Of a stretch of 13,879 bases of DNA, positions 658 through 13,152 are shown in pieces. A program made the translations under genes and the position numbers. Location of the stretch: positions 1 to 13,879 of the forward strand of contig CAMFPZ010000004.1 of assembly GCA_945979635.1 (NCBI GenBank). Reading direction: 5' to 3'. The stretch is from an uncultured Eubacterium sp. (GTDB lineage Bacteria > Bacillota > Clostridia > Oscillospirales > Acutalibacteraceae). The stretch's first letter is position 1, and every line of letters begins with the position of its first letter. The notes below the pieces were generated by a model. That model ran no database searches, was not told the DNA's origin, and worked only from the letters and a program-made list of their open reading frames with translations.

Positions 658-1131
658 CTATTCCTCTTCTGTTTCAACAGGGTATTCTAAATCGCTTTTT
701 GTGAGATTTGCGATAATGCTCGAATAATGCTTTGCTTCCTCCTTTGCCTGGGGAAGATTGTGTTCAAGACAGTTTGAGCACGCATTTACCGAAGCGTTTG
801 GAATTCTGCCCCAAAAATCCTCGGCGTGCTTGAATGCTGATTTAATGAGTTCAACCGTATATTTATCGCTGAGGCTTCTGGTGATGAGGAAAAATCCTGT
901 CCTCGAAGCCATCGGGCCAAAGAAAATAATATTGTCTGCAAATTCTGTTTTCGAAAGATATTCGTTTATGATATGCTCGAGTGTATGGAGTGCGGAGTTC
1001 GTTAGAACAGGCTCTCTGTTAGGCTCCTTCATTCGGATGTCATAAGTCGTAATATCCTCGTTTATTGAGCTGATGTAGATACCCGGCTTAAGAATATTTT
1101 TGTCAGCTGATGCTAAAGGTGATGTTTTCAT
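658..1131 (-). CDS. luxS: LuxS-like protein (S-ribosylhomocysteine lyase family) with altered active site
   Basis: A 157-residue member of the LuxS family, whose active members split S-ribosylhomocysteine into homocysteine and DPD, the AI-2 precursor. Family landmarks are clear: YDIRMKEPNRE at 30-40 (R33 matches the conserved Arg of FDIRF), the zinc motif HTLEH at 49-53 (H49, E52, H53), GPMASRTGFF at 72-81, and C118 at the third zinc ligand before NCLEHNLPQAK. The length is typical. The family-defining GPMGCRTG is here GPMASRTG, so the catalytic Cys (Cys84 in Bacillus subtilis) is Ser76. The DH motif near the N-terminus is D10-K11, so another conserved active-site residue is changed. The codon is TCG, two base changes from TGC or TGT. 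Zinc binding should persist, but normal lyase activity is doubtful. The ATG overlaps the preceding stop by one base (TAATG); AGAGG lies 7 nt upstream. Confidence 0.88.
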   Translation of the reverse strand: MKTSPLASADKNILKPGIYISSINEDITTYDIRMKEPNREPVLTNSALHTLEHIINEYLSKTEFADNIIFFGPMASRTGFFLITRSLSDKYTVELIKSAFKHAEDFWGRIPNASVNACSNCLEHNLPQAKEEAKHYSSIIANLTKSDLEYPVETEEE

Positions 1132-3860: not shown

Positions 3861-6293
3861 TTAAAAACCTAATTTTTGTAATTTCGTGATGATGTAAACA
3901 AATAGATTCCAAATGCTCAGAAAAGCGGCACAAGCCGTAGCGGTGAGCTGTGAATAACCCTTAAGAACCGATAAAATTACGATTGCACAAATGCCCAAGG
4001 CTGAGCCGAAGGCAGAAAGGAAATATAAAATTTTCTTGCTGGATATGATGTTGTATGCTCCACGCATTGCACCGATGAATCCCTTTGCCGAGCCGTCGTG
4101 TACTATGTATGACGGTGATTTGTGTACCGTCATATCCGAGTATTTCTCAAAAACTCTTGAGGCGGAATAATTCATTACTCTGACAAATCCCTTCGGGAGA
4201 TTGAAGAGCTCGGCTATGCTGTCCTCGTTGATATAAGGATCACAGCTTTTTACAATAAGCGTTATTCCTGTTTTTTCGAGCTTCTTGAGTTCACGCTTTA
4301 GTTCGGGGTCGGCACTGTATGAAACTACGAACATTGCCATAATCTTTCCGTTCACTGCCAGATACAGAGCCTTGCGGTTCTTTACTGTGTGCTTTTTTTC
4401 GAAGCTTTCCTTGGGAACCTCTACTCCGTGATGAATAAGCAGGTTTCGGGTTCCTATCAAAACCTTGCGTTTGTATACCCAGGCAGAGGTTCCGAGGCTG
4501 TCCTCATAAACGACATTTTCAACCATCGGAAGTATGGATTGCTTTCCGATGATAACATCGTCGAATACATTAGCCAGCGGACTCTTTGTTTGTGTTATAA
4601 CTGCAGCAGCATATATTATTGCATCATCAACCTTTGCCTTATGAAAAACCTTAATGCCGTGCAAATCGCATCCCTGTTTGCCGAATAGAGCCGAAGCCTC
4701 CATAACCATGGCATCTGTGTTTATTGCCATATTAGCACCATCAAAGCCGCATACTCTTGAGTTGTATTTTTCGAGCTCCTCCGACAAATCCGTGAGCAGG
4801 CTGTTCATCAAAAACAATACTGCTATCGGGGTGGAAACGGCCATAGCACACATAGCTGTGTTTATTCCTGTATACCAGCCTTCTGTTGCTCCGACGAATA
4901 TCAGAATTGCGGTGCTCAATGCCCACATTATAGGCGAAAGCACCTTGACCAGCTTGTTGCTTGGCTCGGTTTTACAGCTTATTTCCATAAAGTTAGTTGG
5001 GAAATCGGTTTTTACAGAGGTTTTTATTATTGGGTTTTCCTCTTCTAATACGCCTCTTGAGATAATATCGCTGTCGACCTTGTTTGCAATATTTTCCAAA
5101 CAGTATTTGTCGCCGTCGCTGATGATGTAATCAAAGTTGTCTATAACTCTTACTATTATTTGAAGCTTTCCGAGTTGCGAAGTAAACAACGACAGAGCAC
5201 CCACTATTCCGAGAAAGCTGCCGTTTTCAATCCATAAATTATCGCTTACTAAAAAGCCTATCGTTTGTGCCAACATTAGTATATTTAGCAATGCAACAGG
5301 CAGGTCGCAATTTATACCCTTTTTGAAATTGAACGCATGAACAAAAATATTGTAGTTTATGCACATTGTGACAGCCAACAGAATCAGGCCTACTGTGAGA
5401 AAAACCTTTGTCGGTGCTAAAAACATCGGAAGATAAACGCTGTCCTTGAATACAGTCATCAGCAACATCAGTAGTCCTGTAATAAGCGTGCAAATTAATT
5501 GCACCTGCGACCTGGATTTTTTTGCAAAAAGTCCCGAAAGAATGTTGCCCTGCTGGTTTTCGTTTTTGTAGTCGGATGATTTATATTCCTCGTCGCCAAG
5601 CTTCTTGTCGGTTTCGTCAGGACCGAATAATCTAAATTTGTTGACCTTTTCTTTTCGTTGCTCAATTAGTATCTTTTCTGCAACCTCTTCATCTATCGAG
5701 GGCACCTCTTCAAACTTATCATCAAATCCGTCGAAGCTCATTTGAATACCGATTTCTGCTTCAAAATCGCTTTCGGAATCATCCTCGCCGTTGAGATAAT
5801 TATTTAGTCTGTCGTGTGAAATCAGCGTAGGTATTTCCTGTAATGCATCCGAGCTCTCTTCTTCGGAGGAGCCTAGGATGACAGGCTTGGTCTTTTCGTT
5901 TGGAAACAACGGAGTGTCGAAAATATCGCTTTCGTCCTCGACAATTTTCATATCGTCGTCGTTTTCATCTGCATTTTCCTCGTCAGTTATTCTGACGGCG
6001 TTTTTTATGCTGGGAATAGCCTTTGTTCTGTCGAGCTTTGGCAGGGCAATTCTTACGGTTTGAGTCTTATTTGCCTTTTTCTCCGGAGCAGTATAAGCTT
6101 TTATATCCTCTTCTTCACTTAATTGCTCAACTCTTTGCATAACCGCTTGGGTATCGACAGTAACCTCGTCGATTGCGTTTTTTGCCATTTCGTCAAGACT
6201 TTTTTGTGCCTCCAGAAGATGCTGCTCTGCCTGTGCCTTGATTTCCTCTGCACGCTTTATAATTTCATCTATTGATAAATCCTTTTCGCTCAT
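3861..6293 (-). CDS. P1B-type ATPase-like membrane protein lacking catalytic motifs
   Basis: An 810-residue protein in three parts. Residues 1-260 are soluble, very acidic (rich in D/E from about 100 to 240) with a charged helical start. Eight membrane segments follow near 264-283, 292-312, 331-349, 358-378, 452-470, 475-497, 755-777 and 783-803. This spacing, with a loop after segment 4 and a large domain after segment 6, is the layout of heavy-metal P1B ATPases. CAMAVSTP (482-489) resembles the CPCALGLATP helix. TKSPLANVFDD (569-579) and SAWVYKRKVLIGTRNLLIHHG (603-623) resemble the nucleotide domain. Yet the phosphorylation motif DKTGT is absent (VMEASALFG at 530-538), TGD(N) is SCDP (683-686), GDGxND is missing, and the actuator loop (380-450) has no TGE. 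It is therefore probably an inactive relative with a sensing or scaffold role; that role is unknown. It follows rlmB by 14 bp with GGAG before the ATG. Confidence 0.75.
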   Translation of the reverse strand: MSEKDLSIDEIIKRAEEIKAQAEQHLLEAQKSLDEMAKNAIDEVTVDTQAVMQRVEQLSEEEDIKAYTAPEKKANKTQTVRIALPKLDRTKAIPSIKNAVRITDEENADENDDDMKIVEDESDIFDTPLFPNEKTKPVILGSSEEESSDALQEIPTLISHDRLNNYLNGEDDSESDFEAEIGIQMSFDGFDDKFEEVPSIDEEVAEKILIEQRKEKVNKFRLFGPDETDKKLGDEEYKSSDYKNENQQGNILSGLFAKKSRSQVQLICTLITGLLMLLMTVFKDSVYLPMFLAPTKVFLTVGLILLAVTMCINYNIFVHAFNFKKGINCDLPVALLNILMLAQTIGFLVSDNLWIENGSFLGIVGALSLFTSQLGKLQIIVRVIDNFDYIISDGDKYCLENIANKVDSDIISRGVLEEENPIIKTSVKTDFPTNFMEISCKTEPSNKLVKVLSPIMWALSTAILIFVGATEGWYTGINTAMCAMAVSTPIAVLFLMNSLLTDLSEELEKYNSRVCGFDGANMAINTDAMVMEASALFGKQGCDLHGIKVFHKAKVDDAIIYAAAVITQTKSPLANVFDDVIIGKQSILPMVENVVYEDSLGTSAWVYKRKVLIGTRNLLIHHGVEVPKESFEKKHTVKNRKALYLAVNGKIMAMFVVSYSADPELKRELKKLEKTGITLIVKSCDPYINEDSIAELFNLPKGFVRVMNYSASRVFEKYSDMTVHKSPSYIVHDGSAKGFIGAMRGAYNIISSKKILYFLSAFGSALGICAIVILSVLKGYSQLTATACAAFLSIWNLFVYIITKLQKLGF

Positions 6294-6307
6294 CTTTTCT
6301 CCGATTC

Positions 6308-7069
6308 TTATTGTTGCTCCAGTCGTTGTCTTGTAATTTCGTACATCAAAACTCCTGCCGCAACGCTGGCGTTAAGGCTGTTGACCTTGCCCAACATAGG
6401 AAGCTTGACTGTAATGTCGCATTTTTCCTTGATTAGTCTGCCGACTCCGTTGCCCTCGCTGCCGATTACGAGACAGCATCCACCCGAAAAGTCGGTTTTG
6501 TCCCAACGCTGACCATCCATATCTGCGGCATAGACCCAAATGTTTTTCTTCTTGAGTTCATCAATGGTCGATGCAAGGTTAGTCACCCTTGCAACCCTCA
6601 TATACTCTAGAGCTCCACAGCTTGTTTTTGCTACAATGTAATTGAGCCCTACATTTCTGCGTTTCGGAATAATAATTCCGTGAGCTGCACATGCCTCAGC
6701 CGTTCTTATTATAGCACCGAGGTTGTGGCTGTCCTCGATTTCATCGCAAAGGATGATGAACGGAGCCTCACCCTTTTCGTCGGCATATGCCAAAATATCC
6801 TCAATAGTGCTGTATTCGTGTGACGGAATATTTGCCGCAACTCCCTGATGATTTCCGCCGGGAGCTAAAAAGTCGAGCTTTTTTCTGTCAACATTTTTGA
6901 TTACAATTTTCTTTTCCTTGCAAAGAGCGATAATTCTGTTTATTGAGCCCTCACGCTCACCCTTAGCAATAAGTACATTTTCTACTTCTTTGTCGCTCTT
7001 TAGAAGCTCCAAAACTGCATTTCGTCCTATAATTAAACTGTCGTTTATTTTGTTATTTTCGTTTTTCAT
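6308..7069 (-). CDS. rlmB: 23S rRNA (guanosine-2'-O-)-methyltransferase RlmB (TrmH/SPOUT family)
   Basis: The 253-residue protein has a short N-terminal substrate-binding domain (IIGRNAVLELL, then GGNHQGVAA) and a C-terminal SPOUT methyltransferase fold. SPOUT motifs are DSHNLGAIIRTAEA (motif 1; N116 and R122), VIGSEGNGVGRL (motif 2; about 201-212) and LPMLGKVNSLNASVAAG (motif 3; about 223-239), which form the trefoil knot that binds SAM. By family it methylates a ribose in the 23S rRNA peptidyl-transferase region. I chose the ATG at 7069 (MKNENN) because the promoter at 7098-7126 would start transcription near 7091. The upstream in-frame starts at 7102 and 7126 lie outside that transcript. 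AGG lies about 10 nt before the chosen start. Confidence 0.9.
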   Translation of the reverse strand: MKNENNKINDSLIIGRNAVLELLKSDKEVENVLIAKGEREGSINRIIALCKEKKIVIKNVDRKKLDFLAPGGNHQGVAANIPSHEYSTIEDILAYADEKGEAPFIILCDEIEDSHNLGAIIRTAEACAAHGIIIPKRRNVGLNYIVAKTSCGALEYMRVARVTNLASTIDELKKKNIWVYAADMDGQRWDKTDFSGGCCLVIGSEGNGVGRLIKEKCDITVKLPMLGKVNSLNASVAAGVLMYEITRQRLEQQ

Positions 7070-7097
7070 AATTCTACCTGCCTGTATAACTGAAATC

Positions 7098-7126
7098 ATT
7101 ATACCATTTTTTAATCCAATATACAA
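7098..7126 (-). promoter_or_regulatory. Sigma-A-type promoter for rlmB
   Basis: On the minus strand TTGTAT (7121-7126), 17 bp, TATAAT (7098-7103). It lies immediately downstream of the S-component terminator and fixes the rlmB start at 7069. Confidence 0.75.
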
Positions 7127-7998: not shown

Positions 7999-9366
7999 AT
8001 GGAGAACGCTGTTTTAATGAAAAAAAAGGAAAAAACAAAATCTTCAATAACATATCCCAGAATCGTTGTTGTCGGATTCGCTCTGCTCATTTTGGTTGGC
8101 TCTGTGATGCTGAGTCTTCCGATTAGCACAAAAACCGGAGGAGTATCCTATATAGACGCTCTGTTTACAGCAACCTCGGCAACCTGTATTACAGGACTTG
8201 TTCCATTTGATACATTCTCAAATTGGACTGTGTTTGGACAAATTGTTATTATTTGCCTGATTCAAATAGGCGGACTTGGATTTATTACAATTCTTTCGAT
8301 TATTTCCCACCTTATCCGAAGGCGTATGGGACTAAAGGAAAAAATGCTTCTGAAGGAGAGCGTGGGCTCAATAAATATCGGAAATGTAAAAAAGCTTTCT
8401 CGTTCTGCCGTAATGTTTACGGCTTGCTGTGAGCTTGTCGGAGCTGTCATTTTGTCTGCTCGATTTGTTCCGCTTGCAGGATGGAAAAGGGGAATATATA
8501 TGTCCGTGTTTACAAGTATTTCTGCTTTTTGTAACGCAGGCTTCGACCTTATGGGTATGTTCTCTGCATCCTCCAGCCTGACCACGGTTAATGACGACCC
8601 TGTGATTCTCATTACGGTTATGCTTTTGATTGTTTTCGGCGGACTTGGCTTTTTCGTTTGGGAGGATATGCGAGAAAATAAATTTCAAATGAAGCGTTTT
8701 TCTCTTCACACGCGACTTGTCCTGTTTACAACCGCAGTTCTTGTTTTCGGCTCGGCAGCCCTGTTTTTAGTTCTCGAGAATAATGCGGGCTTCGAGCAAA
8801 TGAGCCTGGGAAAGAAAATTCTTAACGCCTTCTTTTGCAGTATTACCCCTAGAACGGCAGGATTCAACAGCGTCGATATTCCTGCTATGAGCAATACGGG
8901 AAAGCTTCTTACTATGCTTTTGATGTTCATCGGAGGTTCGACAGGCTCCACTGCCGGCGGCGTAAAAACCTCCACGGTAGCCGTAATTTTTATATGTGCC
9001 GTATCAACCTTTAAGAATAAGGAGGATATTGAATTATTCGGAAGACGAATTGACTTTAGGGTACTCAAGAGTGCAGTGTCCATTTGTCTTGTTAATCTTT
9101 TGAATATTATTATCGCTTCCTTTGTTATTTCAATAAACCAAGGCGAGTTTGCTCTGCTTGATGTTATTTTTGAATGTACCTCGGCTATGGGTACTGTCGG
9201 AATAACAGCGGGAATTACGCCGGATTTGAATACATTGTCTATGATAGTGATTATTGTGCTTATGTATATCGGACGATTAACCTCATTGATTTTTGCGTTG
9301 TCGTTCGTGGTTGCAAAGCCAACTGTAACAACAAGAAAACCGCTTGGTAAGCTAATGGTGGGTTAG
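7999..9366 (+). CDS. ktrB: Potassium uptake channel subunit KtrB (TrkH family)
   Basis: A 455-residue membrane protein with four M1-P-M2 repeats forming the K+ pore. The four filter segments are visible: ATCITGL (61-67), SAFCNAGF (175-182), TPRTAGFN (283-290) and SAMGTVGIT (395-403), each carrying the conserved Gly. The small-residue loop FIGGSTGSTAGG (310-321) matches the intramembrane gate in repeat 3. The length is that of KtrB rather than the longer TrkH. AGGA lies 7 nt before the ATG. The gate subunit gene ktrA follows after 19 bp. K+ uptake is probably coupled to Na+ or the membrane potential, as in the family. Confidence 0.93.
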   Translation: MENAVLMKKKEKTKSSITYPRIVVVGFALLILVGSVMLSLPISTKTGGVSYIDALFTATSATCITGLVPFDTFSNWTVFGQIVIICLIQIGGLGFITILSIISHLIRRRMGLKEKMLLKESVGSINIGNVKKLSRSAVMFTACCELVGAVILSARFVPLAGWKRGIYMSVFTSISAFCNAGFDLMGMFSASSSLTTVNDDPVILITVMLLIVFGGLGFFVWEDMRENKFQMKRFSLHTRLVLFTTAVLVFGSAALFLVLENNAGFEQMSLGKKILNAFFCSITPRTAGFNSVDIPAMSNTGKLLTMLLMFIGGSTGSTAGGVKTSTVAVIFICAVSTFKNKEDIELFGRRIDFRVLKSAVSICLVNLLNIIIASFVISINQGEFALLDVIFECTSAMGTVGITAGITPDLNTLSMIVIIVLMYIGRLTSLIFALSFVVAKPTVTTRKPLGKLMVG

Positions 9367-9385
9367 TCCACAGAAAGAGGTAATA

Positions 9386-10027
9386 ATGAAGAGTATTTTG
9401 GTAATCGGAGCAGGAAGATATGGTACTCATCTTGCATTAGAATTGTATAAGTTGGGCAATGAGGTTATGATTGTTGACCAAGATGAAACAAAGATTAATG
9501 AGATTTCACATCTTGTTACCGCCGCTGAAATAGGCGATTTTACAATAAAAAGCAATTTGGAATCACTCGGCGTTTCGGATTTTGATTATATTTTCCTGTG
9601 TATGAGCGACTTTAAGAGTAGTCTTATTATCCTTGACTACCTAAAGGAGCTTGGTGCAGGTATCGTTATAGCAAAGGCTTCCGGCGAGGTTCACGAAAAA
9701 TTTTTGCTCAAAAACGGTGCGGATAATGTTGTTTATCCCGAGCGTGATTTTGCCTTGGCTACCGCTGTTGAGTATTCGAATCGTAAAATTTTCGATTTCA
9801 TAAGGCTTTCGGATGATACGGGAATTTATGAGATTGAAGCCCCTGATAAATGGTGCTCCTATACTCTTGCTAATCTTGATGTACGAAAAAAGCATAATGT
9901 TTCTGTTATCGCCTCAAAGTGTGAAGGCAAGGTTGTTGCAATAAATAACCCTGATTATACCTTTAAGAAGGACGAACATATCTATGTTATGGGAACACCG
10001 AAGGATATTACAAAGCTTACCAAATGA
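9386..10027 (+). CDS. ktrA: Potassium uptake regulatory subunit KtrA (RCK domains)
   Basis: The 213-residue cytosolic partner of KtrB. Residues 1-125 form an RCK-N Rossmann domain with IGAGRYG (7-13) as the dinucleotide loop and D31 at the end of strand 2 (VMIVDQDE). Residues 140-213 form an RCK-C domain. KtrA assembles as a ring that opens KtrB on binding ATP; in Firmicutes the RCK-C domain often binds c-di-AMP, which cannot be judged here. AGAGG precedes the ATG. Translation ends shortly before the shared terminator at 10030-10061. Confidence 0.92.
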   Translation: MKSILVIGAGRYGTHLALELYKLGNEVMIVDQDETKINEISHLVTAAEIGDFTIKSNLESLGVSDFDYIFLCMSDFKSSLIILDYLKELGAGIVIAKASGEVHEKFLLKNGADNVVYPERDFALATAVEYSNRKIFDFIRLSDDTGIYEIEAPDKWCSYTLANLDVRKKHNVSVIASKCEGKVVAINNPDYTFKKDEHIYVMGTPKDITKLTK

Positions 10028-10077: not shown

Positions 10078-11448
10078 TTATAATGATGCTTTTGCAAGCT
10101 CAATTTGCTTCAGTACGCTTTCGGCACTTGGAGAACCGGCAACCTTGCGGTCGTTTACACATTTTTCCAGATTGATAGCGGAGTAAACTCCGTCGTCAAA
10201 TAAATCGCATATCGCCTTGTATTCTTCAAGAGGCAGGGTTTCGAGAGTTAGTCCCTTGTCTATGCATAAAGCAACGAGCTGTCCTGTGCATTTGTAAGCA
10301 TCTCTAAACGGCAAGCCCTTGCCGACAAGATAATCGGCACAGTCGGTTGCGTTGATAAATCCCTTTGCTGCCGCAAGACGCATATTGTCCTTAAGAACCG
10401 TCATTGTCTCTATCATTGGAGTGAATGCCGTCAAACACATTTTCACTGTATCAACAGCATCGAAGATTGCCTCCTTGTCCTCCTGCATATCCTTGTTGTA
10501 CGCCAGAGCAATGCCCTTCATAACAGTCAATAGTGTAGTTAAATCACCGAAAACACGGCCGCTTTTACCCCTAACCAGCTCTGCTATGTCAGGGTTCTTT
10601 TTTTGCGGCATAATGGATGAGCCTGTCGAAAATGCATCGTCTAGCTCTATGAATTTGAATTCCCAGCTGCACCACATAATTATTTCTTCGCTGAATCGAG
10701 AAAGATGAACCATAATCAGCGAAAGTGCCGATGCAAGCTCAATGCAAAAATCTCTGTCCGAAACACCGTCGAGTGAGTTGGCTGTGATTGAATCGAATCC
10801 GAGAAGCTCGGCTACCATTTCTCTGTCAAGAGGGTAGGTTGTACCCGCTAATGCACCTGAACCGAGAGGACAAACATTGAGCCTTTTCTTGACATCCTTG
10901 AGTCTGTCAATATCCCTCAAAATCATACTGCAATATGCCATAAGGTGATGACCGAAGGTGATTGGCTGTGCTCTTTGAAGATGGGTATATCCCGGCATAA
11001 TGGTTTGCTTGTGCTCCTCTGCCTTTTCGCATAGAACATAGATCAGAGCCTTGAGCATTTCGCTGATTTCGTCTATTTCCTTTCGTAGGGTGAGACGGAT
11101 ATCGAGAGCAACCTGGTCGTTTCTTGACCTCGCTGTGTGGAGTCGCTTTCCTGTTTGTCCGAGTCTTTCTGTAAGCTCGCCCTCTATGAAGGTGTGAATA
11201 TCCTCGGCATTCATATCAATTATCAGCTTGCCGCTCTTGATGTCCTCCAGTATTTCACCTAAGCCGTTGATGATTTTTTCGCTTTCGGACTTTTCGATTA
11301 TGCCTGTTGCTCCGAGCATTGTAGCGTGGGCGATTGAACCCTTTATATCCTCCTCGAACATTCTTGAATCGAAGCTGATTGAGGAGTTAAAATCATTCGT
11401 TTCCTTTGCAAGCTCCTTTTTGAACCTGCCCTTCCAAAGCTGTGCCAT
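10078..11448 (-). CDS. argH: Argininosuccinate lyase
   Basis: The 456-residue enzyme cleaves argininosuccinate to arginine and fumarate, the last step of arginine synthesis. Landmarks are the N-terminal MAQLWKGRF, TARSRNDQ (105-112), PGYTHLQRAQP (152-162, catalytic His156) and the fumarase/lyase signature GSSIMPQKKNPD (276-287), whose serine is catalytic. The length is normal. I chose the ATG at 11448 because the family begins M-A-x-L-W-x-GRF; an in-frame extension to 11502 only reads through the palindromic element. The ribosome site AAGG is 11 nt away and weak. It lies 92 bp after argG and is probably in one transcript with it. Confidence 0.96.
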   Translation of the reverse strand: MAQLWKGRFKKELAKETNDFNSSISFDSRMFEEDIKGSIAHATMLGATGIIEKSESEKIINGLGEILEDIKSGKLIIDMNAEDIHTFIEGELTERLGQTGKRLHTARSRNDQVALDIRLTLRKEIDEISEMLKALIYVLCEKAEEHKQTIMPGYTHLQRAQPITFGHHLMAYCSMILRDIDRLKDVKKRLNVCPLGSGALAGTTYPLDREMVAELLGFDSITANSLDGVSDRDFCIELASALSLIMVHLSRFSEEIIMWCSWEFKFIELDDAFSTGSSIMPQKKNPDIAELVRGKSGRVFGDLTTLLTVMKGIALAYNKDMQEDKEAIFDAVDTVKMCLTAFTPMIETMTVLKDNMRLAAAKGFINATDCADYLVGKGLPFRDAYKCTGQLVALCIDKGLTLETLPLEEYKAICDLFDDGVYSAINLEKCVNDRKVAGSPSAESVLKQIELAKASL

Positions 11449-11478
11449 ATTAGAGATAGCCTTTCGTTTGTTTAATAA

Positions 11479-11530
11479 GGCTCCCCTTGCTTTGTTCGTC
11501 AAGAGGAGCTGTCACGAAGTGACCGGGAGA
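11479..11530. repeat. REP-like palindromic element between argG and argH
   Basis: On the minus strand TCTCCC leads into the hairpin GTCAC-TTC-GTGAC (11511-11523), then GCTCCTC (11503-11509), a spacer, and GGGGAGC (11480-11486), which pair with each other. This two-hairpin pattern, CTCCC...GTCACTTCGTGAC-AGCTCC...GGGAGCC, resembles short dispersed repeats common in Clostridia genomes. Only one copy is in this window, so the family match is from memory and not demonstrated. It lies entirely within the argG-argH gap. Confidence 0.6.
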
Positions 11531-11540
11531 TAAAAGCTCT

Positions 11541-12773
11541 TTATTGCTCATTCCTTTGTTGGTCAAGCAGTGCCTTAACCTTGATTGATAATCCAAAGAG
11601 ATTGATGAAGCCGGAAGCGTCTGCTTGATTATATGCACCGCCGTCATCACCAAATGAAGCAACATTCTCATCATATAAGGTGTATGGTGAGGTGATACCT
11701 GCGTTTATCACATTGCCCTTGTAGAGCTTTAGCTTAACATCGCCCGTAACTGTCTTTTGAGTTTCATCAACAAATGCAGATAATGCCTCACGCAATGGTG
11801 TGAACCATAAGCCGTTGTATACAAGCTCGCCGAATTTTTGTGCGATGAGCTTCTTATAGTGTTGAGTTTCCTTGTCTAGGGTGATGGTTTCGAGCATTTC
11901 GTGTGCCTTGTAGAGGATTTCACCGCCGGGAGTCTCATATACTCCACGGGATTTCATACCAACGAGACGGTTTTCAACGATGTCAAGAAGACCGATTCCG
12001 TTTTCGCCGCCTACCTTGTTGAGAGCCTCAACGATTGCGAGAGGTGACATTTCCTCGCCGTCGATTGCGGTCGGAACGCCCTTTTCGAAATGAAGGGTGA
12101 TGTATGTCGGCTTGTCGGGAGCCTGCTCCGGTGATACGCCCATCTCAAGGAAGCCTTCCTTGTTGTAAAGCGGTTCGTTTGCCGGGTCCTCAAGATCGAG
12201 TCCCTCGTGTGAAAGATGCCAAACATTCTTATCCTTTGAATAGTTTGTTTCACGGTTTATCTTGAGAGGGATGTTGTGAGCCTCGGCATATTCGATTTCC
12301 TGCTCACGCGAAACGATATCCCATTCACGCCATGGAGCGATGATTTCCATTTCCGGAGCAAATGCCTTCAGGGTTAGCTCAAAACGAACCTGATCGTTGC
12401 CCTTTCCTGTACATCCGTGGCAGATAGCGTCCGCACCCTCCTTCTTTGCGATTTCGGCAAGTCCCTTTGCAATGCAGGGACGAGCGTGAGATGTTCCGAG
12501 GAGGTATTTTTCATATTCTGCTCCTGCCTTGAGGCAAGGGAAGATATAGTCCGCAACATATTCCTCCTTTAGGTCGAGAACATAAAGCTTTGATGCACCT
12601 GTTGCAATCGCTTTTTCCTCCAGACCGTCGAGCTCTGTTCCTTGTCCTACATCACCGCTTACTGCGATAACCTCGCAGTTATTGTAATTCTCCTTGAGCC
12701 AAGGAATGATGATGGATGTATCGAGTCCGCCGCTGTATGCTAGCACTACCTTTTTGATGTCCTTCTTGTTCAT
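11541..12773 (-). CDS. argG: Argininosuccinate synthase
   Basis: The 410-residue enzyme joins citrulline and aspartate using ATP to make argininosuccinate, the substrate of the argH product. The N-type ATP pyrophosphatase loop AYSGGLDTS is at 12-20. [12 protein letters not shown] (93-104) and [14 protein letters not shown] (119-132) are the citrulline/aspartate-binding segments, and PWREW follows. The length is typical. The ATG at 12773 has AAAGGAG 8 nt upstream; an in-frame start at 12863 would lie upstream of the -35 box at 12835-12840 and is rejected. It is first in argGH. Confidence 0.96.
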
Positions 12774-12812
12774 ATCGAGAACTCCTTTTCCGTTGAATTG
12801 ATAACTGTACCT

Positions 12813-12840
12813 ATTATAACACCTAAATTCATAAATGCAA
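12813..12840 (-). promoter_or_regulatory. Sigma-A-type promoter for argG-argH
   Basis: On the minus strand TTGCAT (12835-12840), 16 bp, TATAAT (12813-12818). The leader would be about 30 nt, so neither a T-box nor a riboswitch fits. Confidence 0.75.
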
Positions 12841-12848
12841 GCCTTTTT

Positions 12849-12862
12849 TGTAATTTTATACA
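12849..12862. promoter_or_regulatory. Possible ARG box (ArgR/AhrC operator), promoter-proximal
   Basis: TGTAATTTTATACA matches the arginine-repressor half-site pattern TGNATWWWWATNCA at all but one position. It sits just upstream of the argG -35 box. The region is AT-rich, so chance similarity is possible. Confidence 0.4.
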
Positions 12863-13152
12863 TAAAAATTAAATAATTTCGTCGATTTAACCTTTAATAT
12901 GTGTATATTAACGAAAATTTATGCATAAATATACAAATATGCGTATATTCCAAGTGTAAACAGAAATTCACATATAACATTAATGTAATTAATATATATG
13001 AATCACCATTTTTACCATATATCCTATGCCTAAACACAAAGGGGAATTTTCATTTTTTTACACAATTGAGAATGTGTATAAGGTAGAAATATTAAAATTT
13101 TATTAATTATCCAAAATTGCTTACAATTTGGAAAAAATGTTGTGCCAAAGTA
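12863..13152. other. AT-rich intergenic region between argG and the secreted-protein gene
   Basis: No plausible gene is seen; short open frames lack ribosome sites. It contains the distal ARG-box candidate and two inverted repeats: TACACA-8 nt-TGTGTA (13059-13078) and CCAAAATTG-CTTA-CAATTTGG (13111-13131). The second repeat ends 21 bp before the -35 box of the rightward promoter and could be an operator. No regulator can be named. Confidence 0.5.
12922..12935. promoter_or_regulatory. Possible ARG box, distal
   Basis: TGCATAAATATACA fits TGNATWWWWATNCA fully. Its centre is 73 bp from the proximal box, close to seven helical turns, as would suit a hexameric repressor binding both on one DNA face. 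No argR gene is in the window. Confidence 0.4.

What the first reader, a model, noticed from the sequence alone, without database searches (positions are those of the whole stretch)
3861..6293. Catalytically degenerate P1B-ATPase-like protein with a 260-residue acidic cytosolic arm
The eight-helix layout and the nucleotide-domain remnants place it with heavy-metal P-type ATPases, but DKTGT, TGE, TGD(N) and GDGxND are all missing or altered while the frame is intact over 810 codons. A conserved pseudo-pump with a large acidic arm would be a sensor, scaffold or chaperone for a membrane process, and I know of no described family of this kind. It is linked to rlmB by a 14-bp gap.
Basis: partly seen in the sequence, partly recalled or inferred. 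Interest (0 to 1): 0.78.

Follow-up and report, generated by a model that had tools for sequence, protein, structure and literature searches.

The report
Dead metal pump kept beside rlmB
A whole order of gut-type bacteria carries, next to a ribosome-modifying gene, a membrane protein descended from copper pumps that has lost its known catalytic parts yet is strongly preserved, so it has probably been re-used for a non-pumping job that still has to be found.

The parts
3861..6293 (-). rlmB-linked pseudo-P1B-ATPase, 810 aa, whole gene
5556..6293 (-). residues 1-246: acidic cytosolic arm, mostly disordered, predicted helix 8-43
5451..5555 (-). residues 247-281: helix MA (first membrane helix, long)
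   Evidence: AF2 model
5121..5411 (-). residues 295-391: helices MB, M1, M2
   Evidence: AF2 model
4965..5120 (-). residues 392-443: shrunken A domain; TGES loop deleted (G375 to P454 span 80 here, 67-81 in the family, 144 in 7 canonical pumps)
4764..4964 (-). residues 444-510: helices M3 and M4; CPC is T488-P489-I490
4674..4763 (-). residues 511-540: first part of P domain; DKTGTLT is EASALFG (residues 532-538), commonest family form DxxDLFP
4314..4673 (-). residues 541-660: N domain; invariant G601 and G614 kept, His of SEHP lost
4089..4313 (-). residues 661-735: second part of P domain; invariant D685 (TGD Asp); GDGxND segment deleted
3867..4088 (-). residues 736-809: helices M5 and M6
   Evidence: AF2 model
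6299..6302 (-). GGAG, ribosome-binding-like box before the ATG
   Evidence: read directly
6308..7126 (-). rlmB, 23S rRNA (guanosine-2251-2'-O)-methyltransferase, 14 bp upstream; the listed TTG start is probably too long, homology begins near residue 20-30
   Evidence: TIGR00186 257.9 bits (cut-off 160.15)

Best explanation
A P1B (CopA-type) ATPase gene in the ancestor of this order lost its catalytic cycle and was kept as a pseudoenzyme. Shown: the P1B fold (by prediction); loss of the parts known to be needed for phosphorylation, dephosphorylation and metal binding; two shared deletions (nearly half of the A-domain span with the TGES loop, and the GDGxND segment); purifying selection; and a fixed place behind rlmB. 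Inferred (about 0.9): it cannot run the E1/E2 pump cycle. Inferred (about 0.5): it works as a non-enzymatic membrane platform or regulator, the 8-helix bundle fixing it in the membrane, the N/P head acting as a rigid or ligand-binding surface, and the arm, where present, recruiting cytosolic partners. Inferred (about 0.35): the partner process is 50S maturation or translation, through RlmB made from the same transcript (co-transcription is itself inferred from the short gap).
Against: No binding, localisation or phenotype evidence exists. The phospho-Asp position is still Asp in 19 of 59. One of 80 named loci has CPC at the M4 site (L189), one of 59 has CPA, and a CPT string occurs somewhere in 2 of the 14 further members (L203, L208, place not checked), so residual metal binding in some members is possible. 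G601, G614 and D685 are invariant, which could mean a retained ligand or catalytic site and not only structure. Gene order alone cannot prove a functional link to RlmB, and the downstream gene varies: DegV here, EF-G-like, MetG, YebC-family, TIGR03960 radical SAM and many others elsewhere.
Confidence: 0.55

Rival explanations
1. Envelope-side scaffold with no functional tie to RlmB: co-transcription only gives it constant expression, and the arm docks it to envelope machinery.
For: A short N-terminal motif (S-x-D-D-I-L-x-E) occurs in 24 of 59 members by a strict pattern, with a near variant LSIDEII in the window's genus. In one genome (G130) the same kind of motif opens a sortase and an ABC-2 permease, 2 of 768 ORFs in 800 kb.
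Against: Order-wide adjacency to rlmB while other neighbours shuffle. The motif on sortase and permease was seen again only in G602 among the 22 loci checked, 2 of which were misread.
Confidence: 0.2
2. Passive channel or gated conduit: the pump's membrane pathway survives and the head gates it.
For: M4 Pro489 is kept in 46 of 59 and all eight helices are kept in the model.
Against: Metal-binding Cys lost in the window protein; no conserved polar residue of the membrane part is among the columns with at least 80% identity (M1, G516, F537, F577, G601, G614, Y644, Y659, D685, W795).
Confidence: 0.12
3. Regulatory partner of an active P1B pump (for example a CopA-pseudo-CopA complex).
For: Matches that look like canonical P1B pumps (about 60-118 bits, model 427-708) are found in many of the same genomes.
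Against: No linkage to a pump, chaperone or metal regulator was seen among the recurrent neighbours; the gene follows rlmB.
Confidence: 0.08
4. Still an ATPase or phosphatase using altered residues around D685 and the DxxDLFP motif.
For: D685, G601 and G614 invariant; acidic residue at position 535 in 47 of 59.
Against: TGES and GDGxND segments deleted, N-domain His lost in 59 of 59; PxDK Lys lost in the window protein.
Confidence: 0.07
5. Decaying pseudogene or assembly artefact.
For: Fast sequence drift: 15-26% identity to members outside the genus; a few homologous places hold one or two stop codons in the aligned stretch (for example G058, G173, G103).
Against: Open frames in nearly all listed matches, one match per genome, dN/dS 0.03-0.12.
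Confidence: 0.01

Closest known systems
P1B-1 copper-exporting ATPase CopA (structures 3rfu, 4bbj)
   Same: Same 8-helix membrane part, N-domain and P-domain core, with the same spacing between M4 Pro, the phospho-Asp site and the TGD Asp.
   Different: No phosphorylation motif, no TGES loop, no GDGxND, no CPC in the window protein, no SEHP His; an N-terminal arm in place of metal-binding domains; behind rlmB in 72 of 73 loci.
Canonical P1B pumps of the same order (L209-L215)
   Same: Homologous over 536 profile columns.
   Different: 7 of 7 keep all motifs. On the family profile canonical-type matches reach at most 138 bits, while the members inspected score 250-842, two divergent ones 178 and 196.
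RlmB (TIGR00186)
   Same: Constant upstream neighbour, probably same transcript.
   Different: An rRNA methyltransferase; no sequence relation.

Membership tests
P1B-type ATPase (as an active pump) | DKTGT phosphorylation motif | tested here: not met
   0 of 59; position is E532 here, D in 19 of 59 but without KTGT
P1B-type ATPase (as an active pump) | TGES dephosphorylation loop of the A domain | tested here: not met
   TGES in 0 of 59; A-domain span 67-81 against 144
P1B-type ATPase (as an active pump) | GDGxND hinge and magnesium site | tested here: not met
   0 of 59; span 46-52 against 81-84
P1B-type ATPase (as an active pump) | CPx metal site in M4 | tested here: not met
   T-P-I here; exceptions in other members: CPA in 1 of 59, CPC in 1 of 80 named loci (L189)
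P1B-type ATPase (as an active pump) | SEHP nucleotide-binding His | tested here: not met
   His in 0 of 59
P1B-type ATPase (as a fold and by descent) | 8 membrane helices plus P and N domains, full-length homology | tested here: met
P1B-type ATPase (as an active pump) | ATP-driven metal transport | not testable with these tools
   needs purified protein
P-type ATPase pseudoenzyme | intact, conserved gene with catalytic residues lost across the clade | tested here: met
RlmB (neighbour gene) | TIGR00186 equivalog score over cut-off | tested here: met
   257.9 bits against 160.15

The most novel reading that the evidence does not exclude
A core component of one bacterial order in which a dead heavy-metal pump serves as a membrane-bound organiser or sensor that couples late 50S maturation (RlmB, ObgE, EF-G-like factor) to the membrane: the first P-type ATPase pseudoenzyme family with a ribosome-linked job.
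Probability: 0.22. Interest if true: 0.87.

Novelty: new variant of a known kind. Interest (0 to 1): 0.72.

Why it matters
Pseudokinases and pseudophosphatases are well known (recall), but my searches of the held open-access library found no described pseudoenzyme family of P-type ATPases. This one is near-universal in a large order common in gut and rumen samples, is retained even in a genome of about 0.9 Mb (G711), and in the listings I saw is named only 'hypothetical protein', 'membrane protein of unknown function' or 'cation transport ATPase'. The last name would suggest metal export wrongly. The rlmB pairing gives a direct, testable handle on what a fold built for pumping can be re-used for, and on a possible membrane link to ribosome maturation.

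Tried and rejected
Sporulation gene: Spo0A_C is present in 27 of 27 genomes tested, 19 with the family and 8 listed as lacking it, so this does not discriminate. Decaying copy: rejected. Different fold: rejected. True absences: mostly rejected; 2 of 8 'missing' genomes hold a divergent homologue after rlmB and 6 lack an rlmB match too. N-terminal motif as a general envelope tag: weak; found on a sortase and a permease in G130 and G602 only. Promoters and terminators: 12 and 5 sites against 12.2 and 4.7 in shuffles, uninformative. The third homologous-protein search gave 34 proteins, 2 of them with canonical P-type Pfam domains. Paper searches: no relevant hit (listings and abstract starts only); in PMC10654040 I read two passages, neither on inactive pumps; PMC3573892, on P-type ATPases of mycobacteria, was seen only in the listing.

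Rows dropped and limits: my gene caller missed the homologue in L102 and L114 (2 of 61 loci), so A1 has 59 rows; both were recovered as L195 and L197. Of the 14 further members, L202 and L207 are cut by contig ends, so GDGxND cannot be judged in L207. The threshold E 1e-42 was chosen after one search showed the best outside-order match (138.4 bits, 1.5e-40); members as divergent as those of G576 and G697 would fall below it, so very divergent relatives outside the order are not excluded. In one search only the 2 best candidates per genome were scored, and the weakest accepted ones (genus g297, E 2.9e-44 to 5.7e-48) were not inspected. The single-sequence counts may include canonical pumps among weak matches. 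Motif regexes hit 6 of 80 loci; 5 lay elsewhere in the protein and only L189 CPC is at the real site. In one search the ORF picked for L284 and L291 was not the queried protein. Spans first measured used unequal end points; one search repeats them with equivalent ones and replaces them.

Full report
WHAT IS THERE. The ORF at 3861-6293 lies on the minus strand. It begins 14 bp after the rlmB stop with a GGAG box in between. Pfam has no model above cut-off for it; NCBIfam gives a sub-threshold CopA match, E 2.3e-10. Of the 59 aligned members, 45 match the CopA model and 40 the heavy-metal ATPase model at E 0.001 or better, while Pfam finds its HAD hydrolase model in 2 of 59. A profile of the 59 members aligns with 7 canonical P1B pumps from the same order over 536 columns, E 9e-34.

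WHAT IS LOST AND WHAT IS KEPT. In 59 of 59 members no DKTGT, TGES or GDGxND occurs; the only other regex hits were CPA in L064 and TGDQ/TGDR in the arms of L060 and L095. The 14 further members also lack DKTGT, TGES and GDGxND, with L202 and L207 cut by contig ends. By profile alignment the phospho-Asp site is D in 19, E in 13 and something else in 27 of 59; the SEHP His is absent in 59 of 59; the PxDK Lys is lost in the window protein. Spacing shows how, measured between end points that the profile alignment equates: M4 Pro to phospho site 43-45 against 44, and phospho site to TGD Asp 146-160 against 145-157, are as in pumps; the A-domain span is 67-81 against 144, and TGD Asp to pre-M5 is 46-52 against 81-84. 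So two deletions, of about 65 and 32 residues and shared by all 59, removed the TGES loop and the GDGxND segment. Kept without exception: G601, G614, D685; nearly so: F537 (54), Y644 (50), Y659 (50), W795 (50). The family has its own recurrent motifs in place of the old ones, for example DxxDLFP and DPNI.

DISTRIBUTION. With the single sequence, 57 of 60 relatives and 134 of 147 order genomes match at E 0.001. With the profile at E 1e-42, 388 of 396 order genomes (the window's own plus others of at least 95% completeness) match, 387 with one match and G713 with two, only the 2 best candidates per genome being scored. Of the 8 misses, 6 have no rlmB match at E 1e-30 either, which points to missing contigs, and G576 and G697 carry a divergent homologue right after rlmB (178 and 196 bits on the family profile; on the canonical profile no match and 11 bits). 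Outside the order, 0 of 294 genomes of the phylum sample match at that threshold, and the best of 278 in the class sample reaches 138.4 bits, over model positions 428-701 only. The family persists in reduced genomes, for example G711 at about 0.9 Mb.

SELECTION. Nei-Gojobori dN/dS for the core is 0.027, 0.048, 0.089, 0.087, 0.102, 0.068, 0.114 and 0.119 in 8 of 9 pairs; the ninth was saturated. Four of the eight dS values exceed 1.5 and are rough. The arm is less constrained than the core in 5 of the 6 pairs where both could be computed (0.078-0.145). rlmB is lower than the core in all 7 computable pairs (0 to 0.063). So the protein drifts fast between families but is under clear purifying selection.

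NEIGHBOURHOOD. rlmB is directly upstream on the same strand in 59 of 59 loci and 13 of 14 further members. In the exception, G037, rlmB lies on another contig and obgE is directly upstream. In named loci, mostly of the window's genus, 66 of 66 with at least 1 kb upstream (of 80) agree. The next most frequent neighbour, an EF-G-like GTPase (NF009381, 853 bits), lies on the same strand within 6 kb downstream in 13 of 59 and in the shorter flank in 5 of 14. Elsewhere the next gene is, among many, MetG, a YebC-family protein or a TIGR03960/TIGR03936 pair; in the window it is degV. The translation flavour of this list is suggestive, but genes near rlmB may be biased that way, and many next genes are unrelated to translation.

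THE ARM. It is net negative in 55 of 59 members and 112-614 residues long in 56, but three members of one family (L087, L094, L096) start directly at the membrane part, so the core carries the conserved function. Its clearest recurrent sequence is a short N-terminal motif, SxDDILxE (24 of 59 by strict regex, against 2 of 949 neighbouring ORFs), which also opens a sortase and an ABC-2 permease in G130 and their close copies in G602, but no other relative that was read correctly.

MECHANISM. Without phospho-acceptor chemistry, actuator loop and hinge, the pump cycle should not run; this step is strongly inferred. What remains is a membrane bundle with an N/P head and usually a long arm. I judge a platform or regulator most likely, with a link to RlmB or 50S maturation as the leading but unproven target. 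A passive conduit, a pump regulator or a cryptic enzyme are rivals that bench work can separate.

NOVELTY. Searches of the held open-access library returned no paper on an inactive P-type ATPase family or on rlmB with such a gene; I saw listings and abstract starts, and two passages of one review. Subscription papers are not covered. Public names in the listings are 'hypothetical protein', 'membrane protein of unknown function' or 'cation transport ATPase'.

Noticed in passing
L236:14989-16458 (-) and L267:15426-16748 (-), genome G130: A sortase and an ABC-2 permease begin with the same SxDDILxE-type N-terminal motif as many members of this family, suggesting a shared docking partner.
   Followed up: partly
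L189 (CANQZA010000001.1): One member has CPC at the M4 metal site although DKTGT, TGES and GDGxND are gone.
   Followed up: no
L087, L094, L096: Members of family f10 (541-548 aa) lack the N-terminal arm completely.
   Followed up: no
L275:4137-5501 (+): In G037, the only one of 73 loci not behind rlmB, obgE sits 21 bp upstream of the pseudo-pump ORF.
   Followed up: partly
P0171 residues 23-196: The Caproicibacterium homologue's arm contains a predicted helix of about 170 charged residues; function unknown.
   Followed up: no
L167 (JAMPEQ010000010.1): Record titled Bacteroides sp. carries a member of this order-specific family behind rlmB; the label is probably wrong.
   Followed up: no
window 658-1131 (-), 7999-10027 (+), 10078-12863 (-): Ordinary neighbours: LuxS-like protein, TrkH/TrkA potassium uptake pair, argininosuccinate lyase and synthase.
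   Followed up: yes
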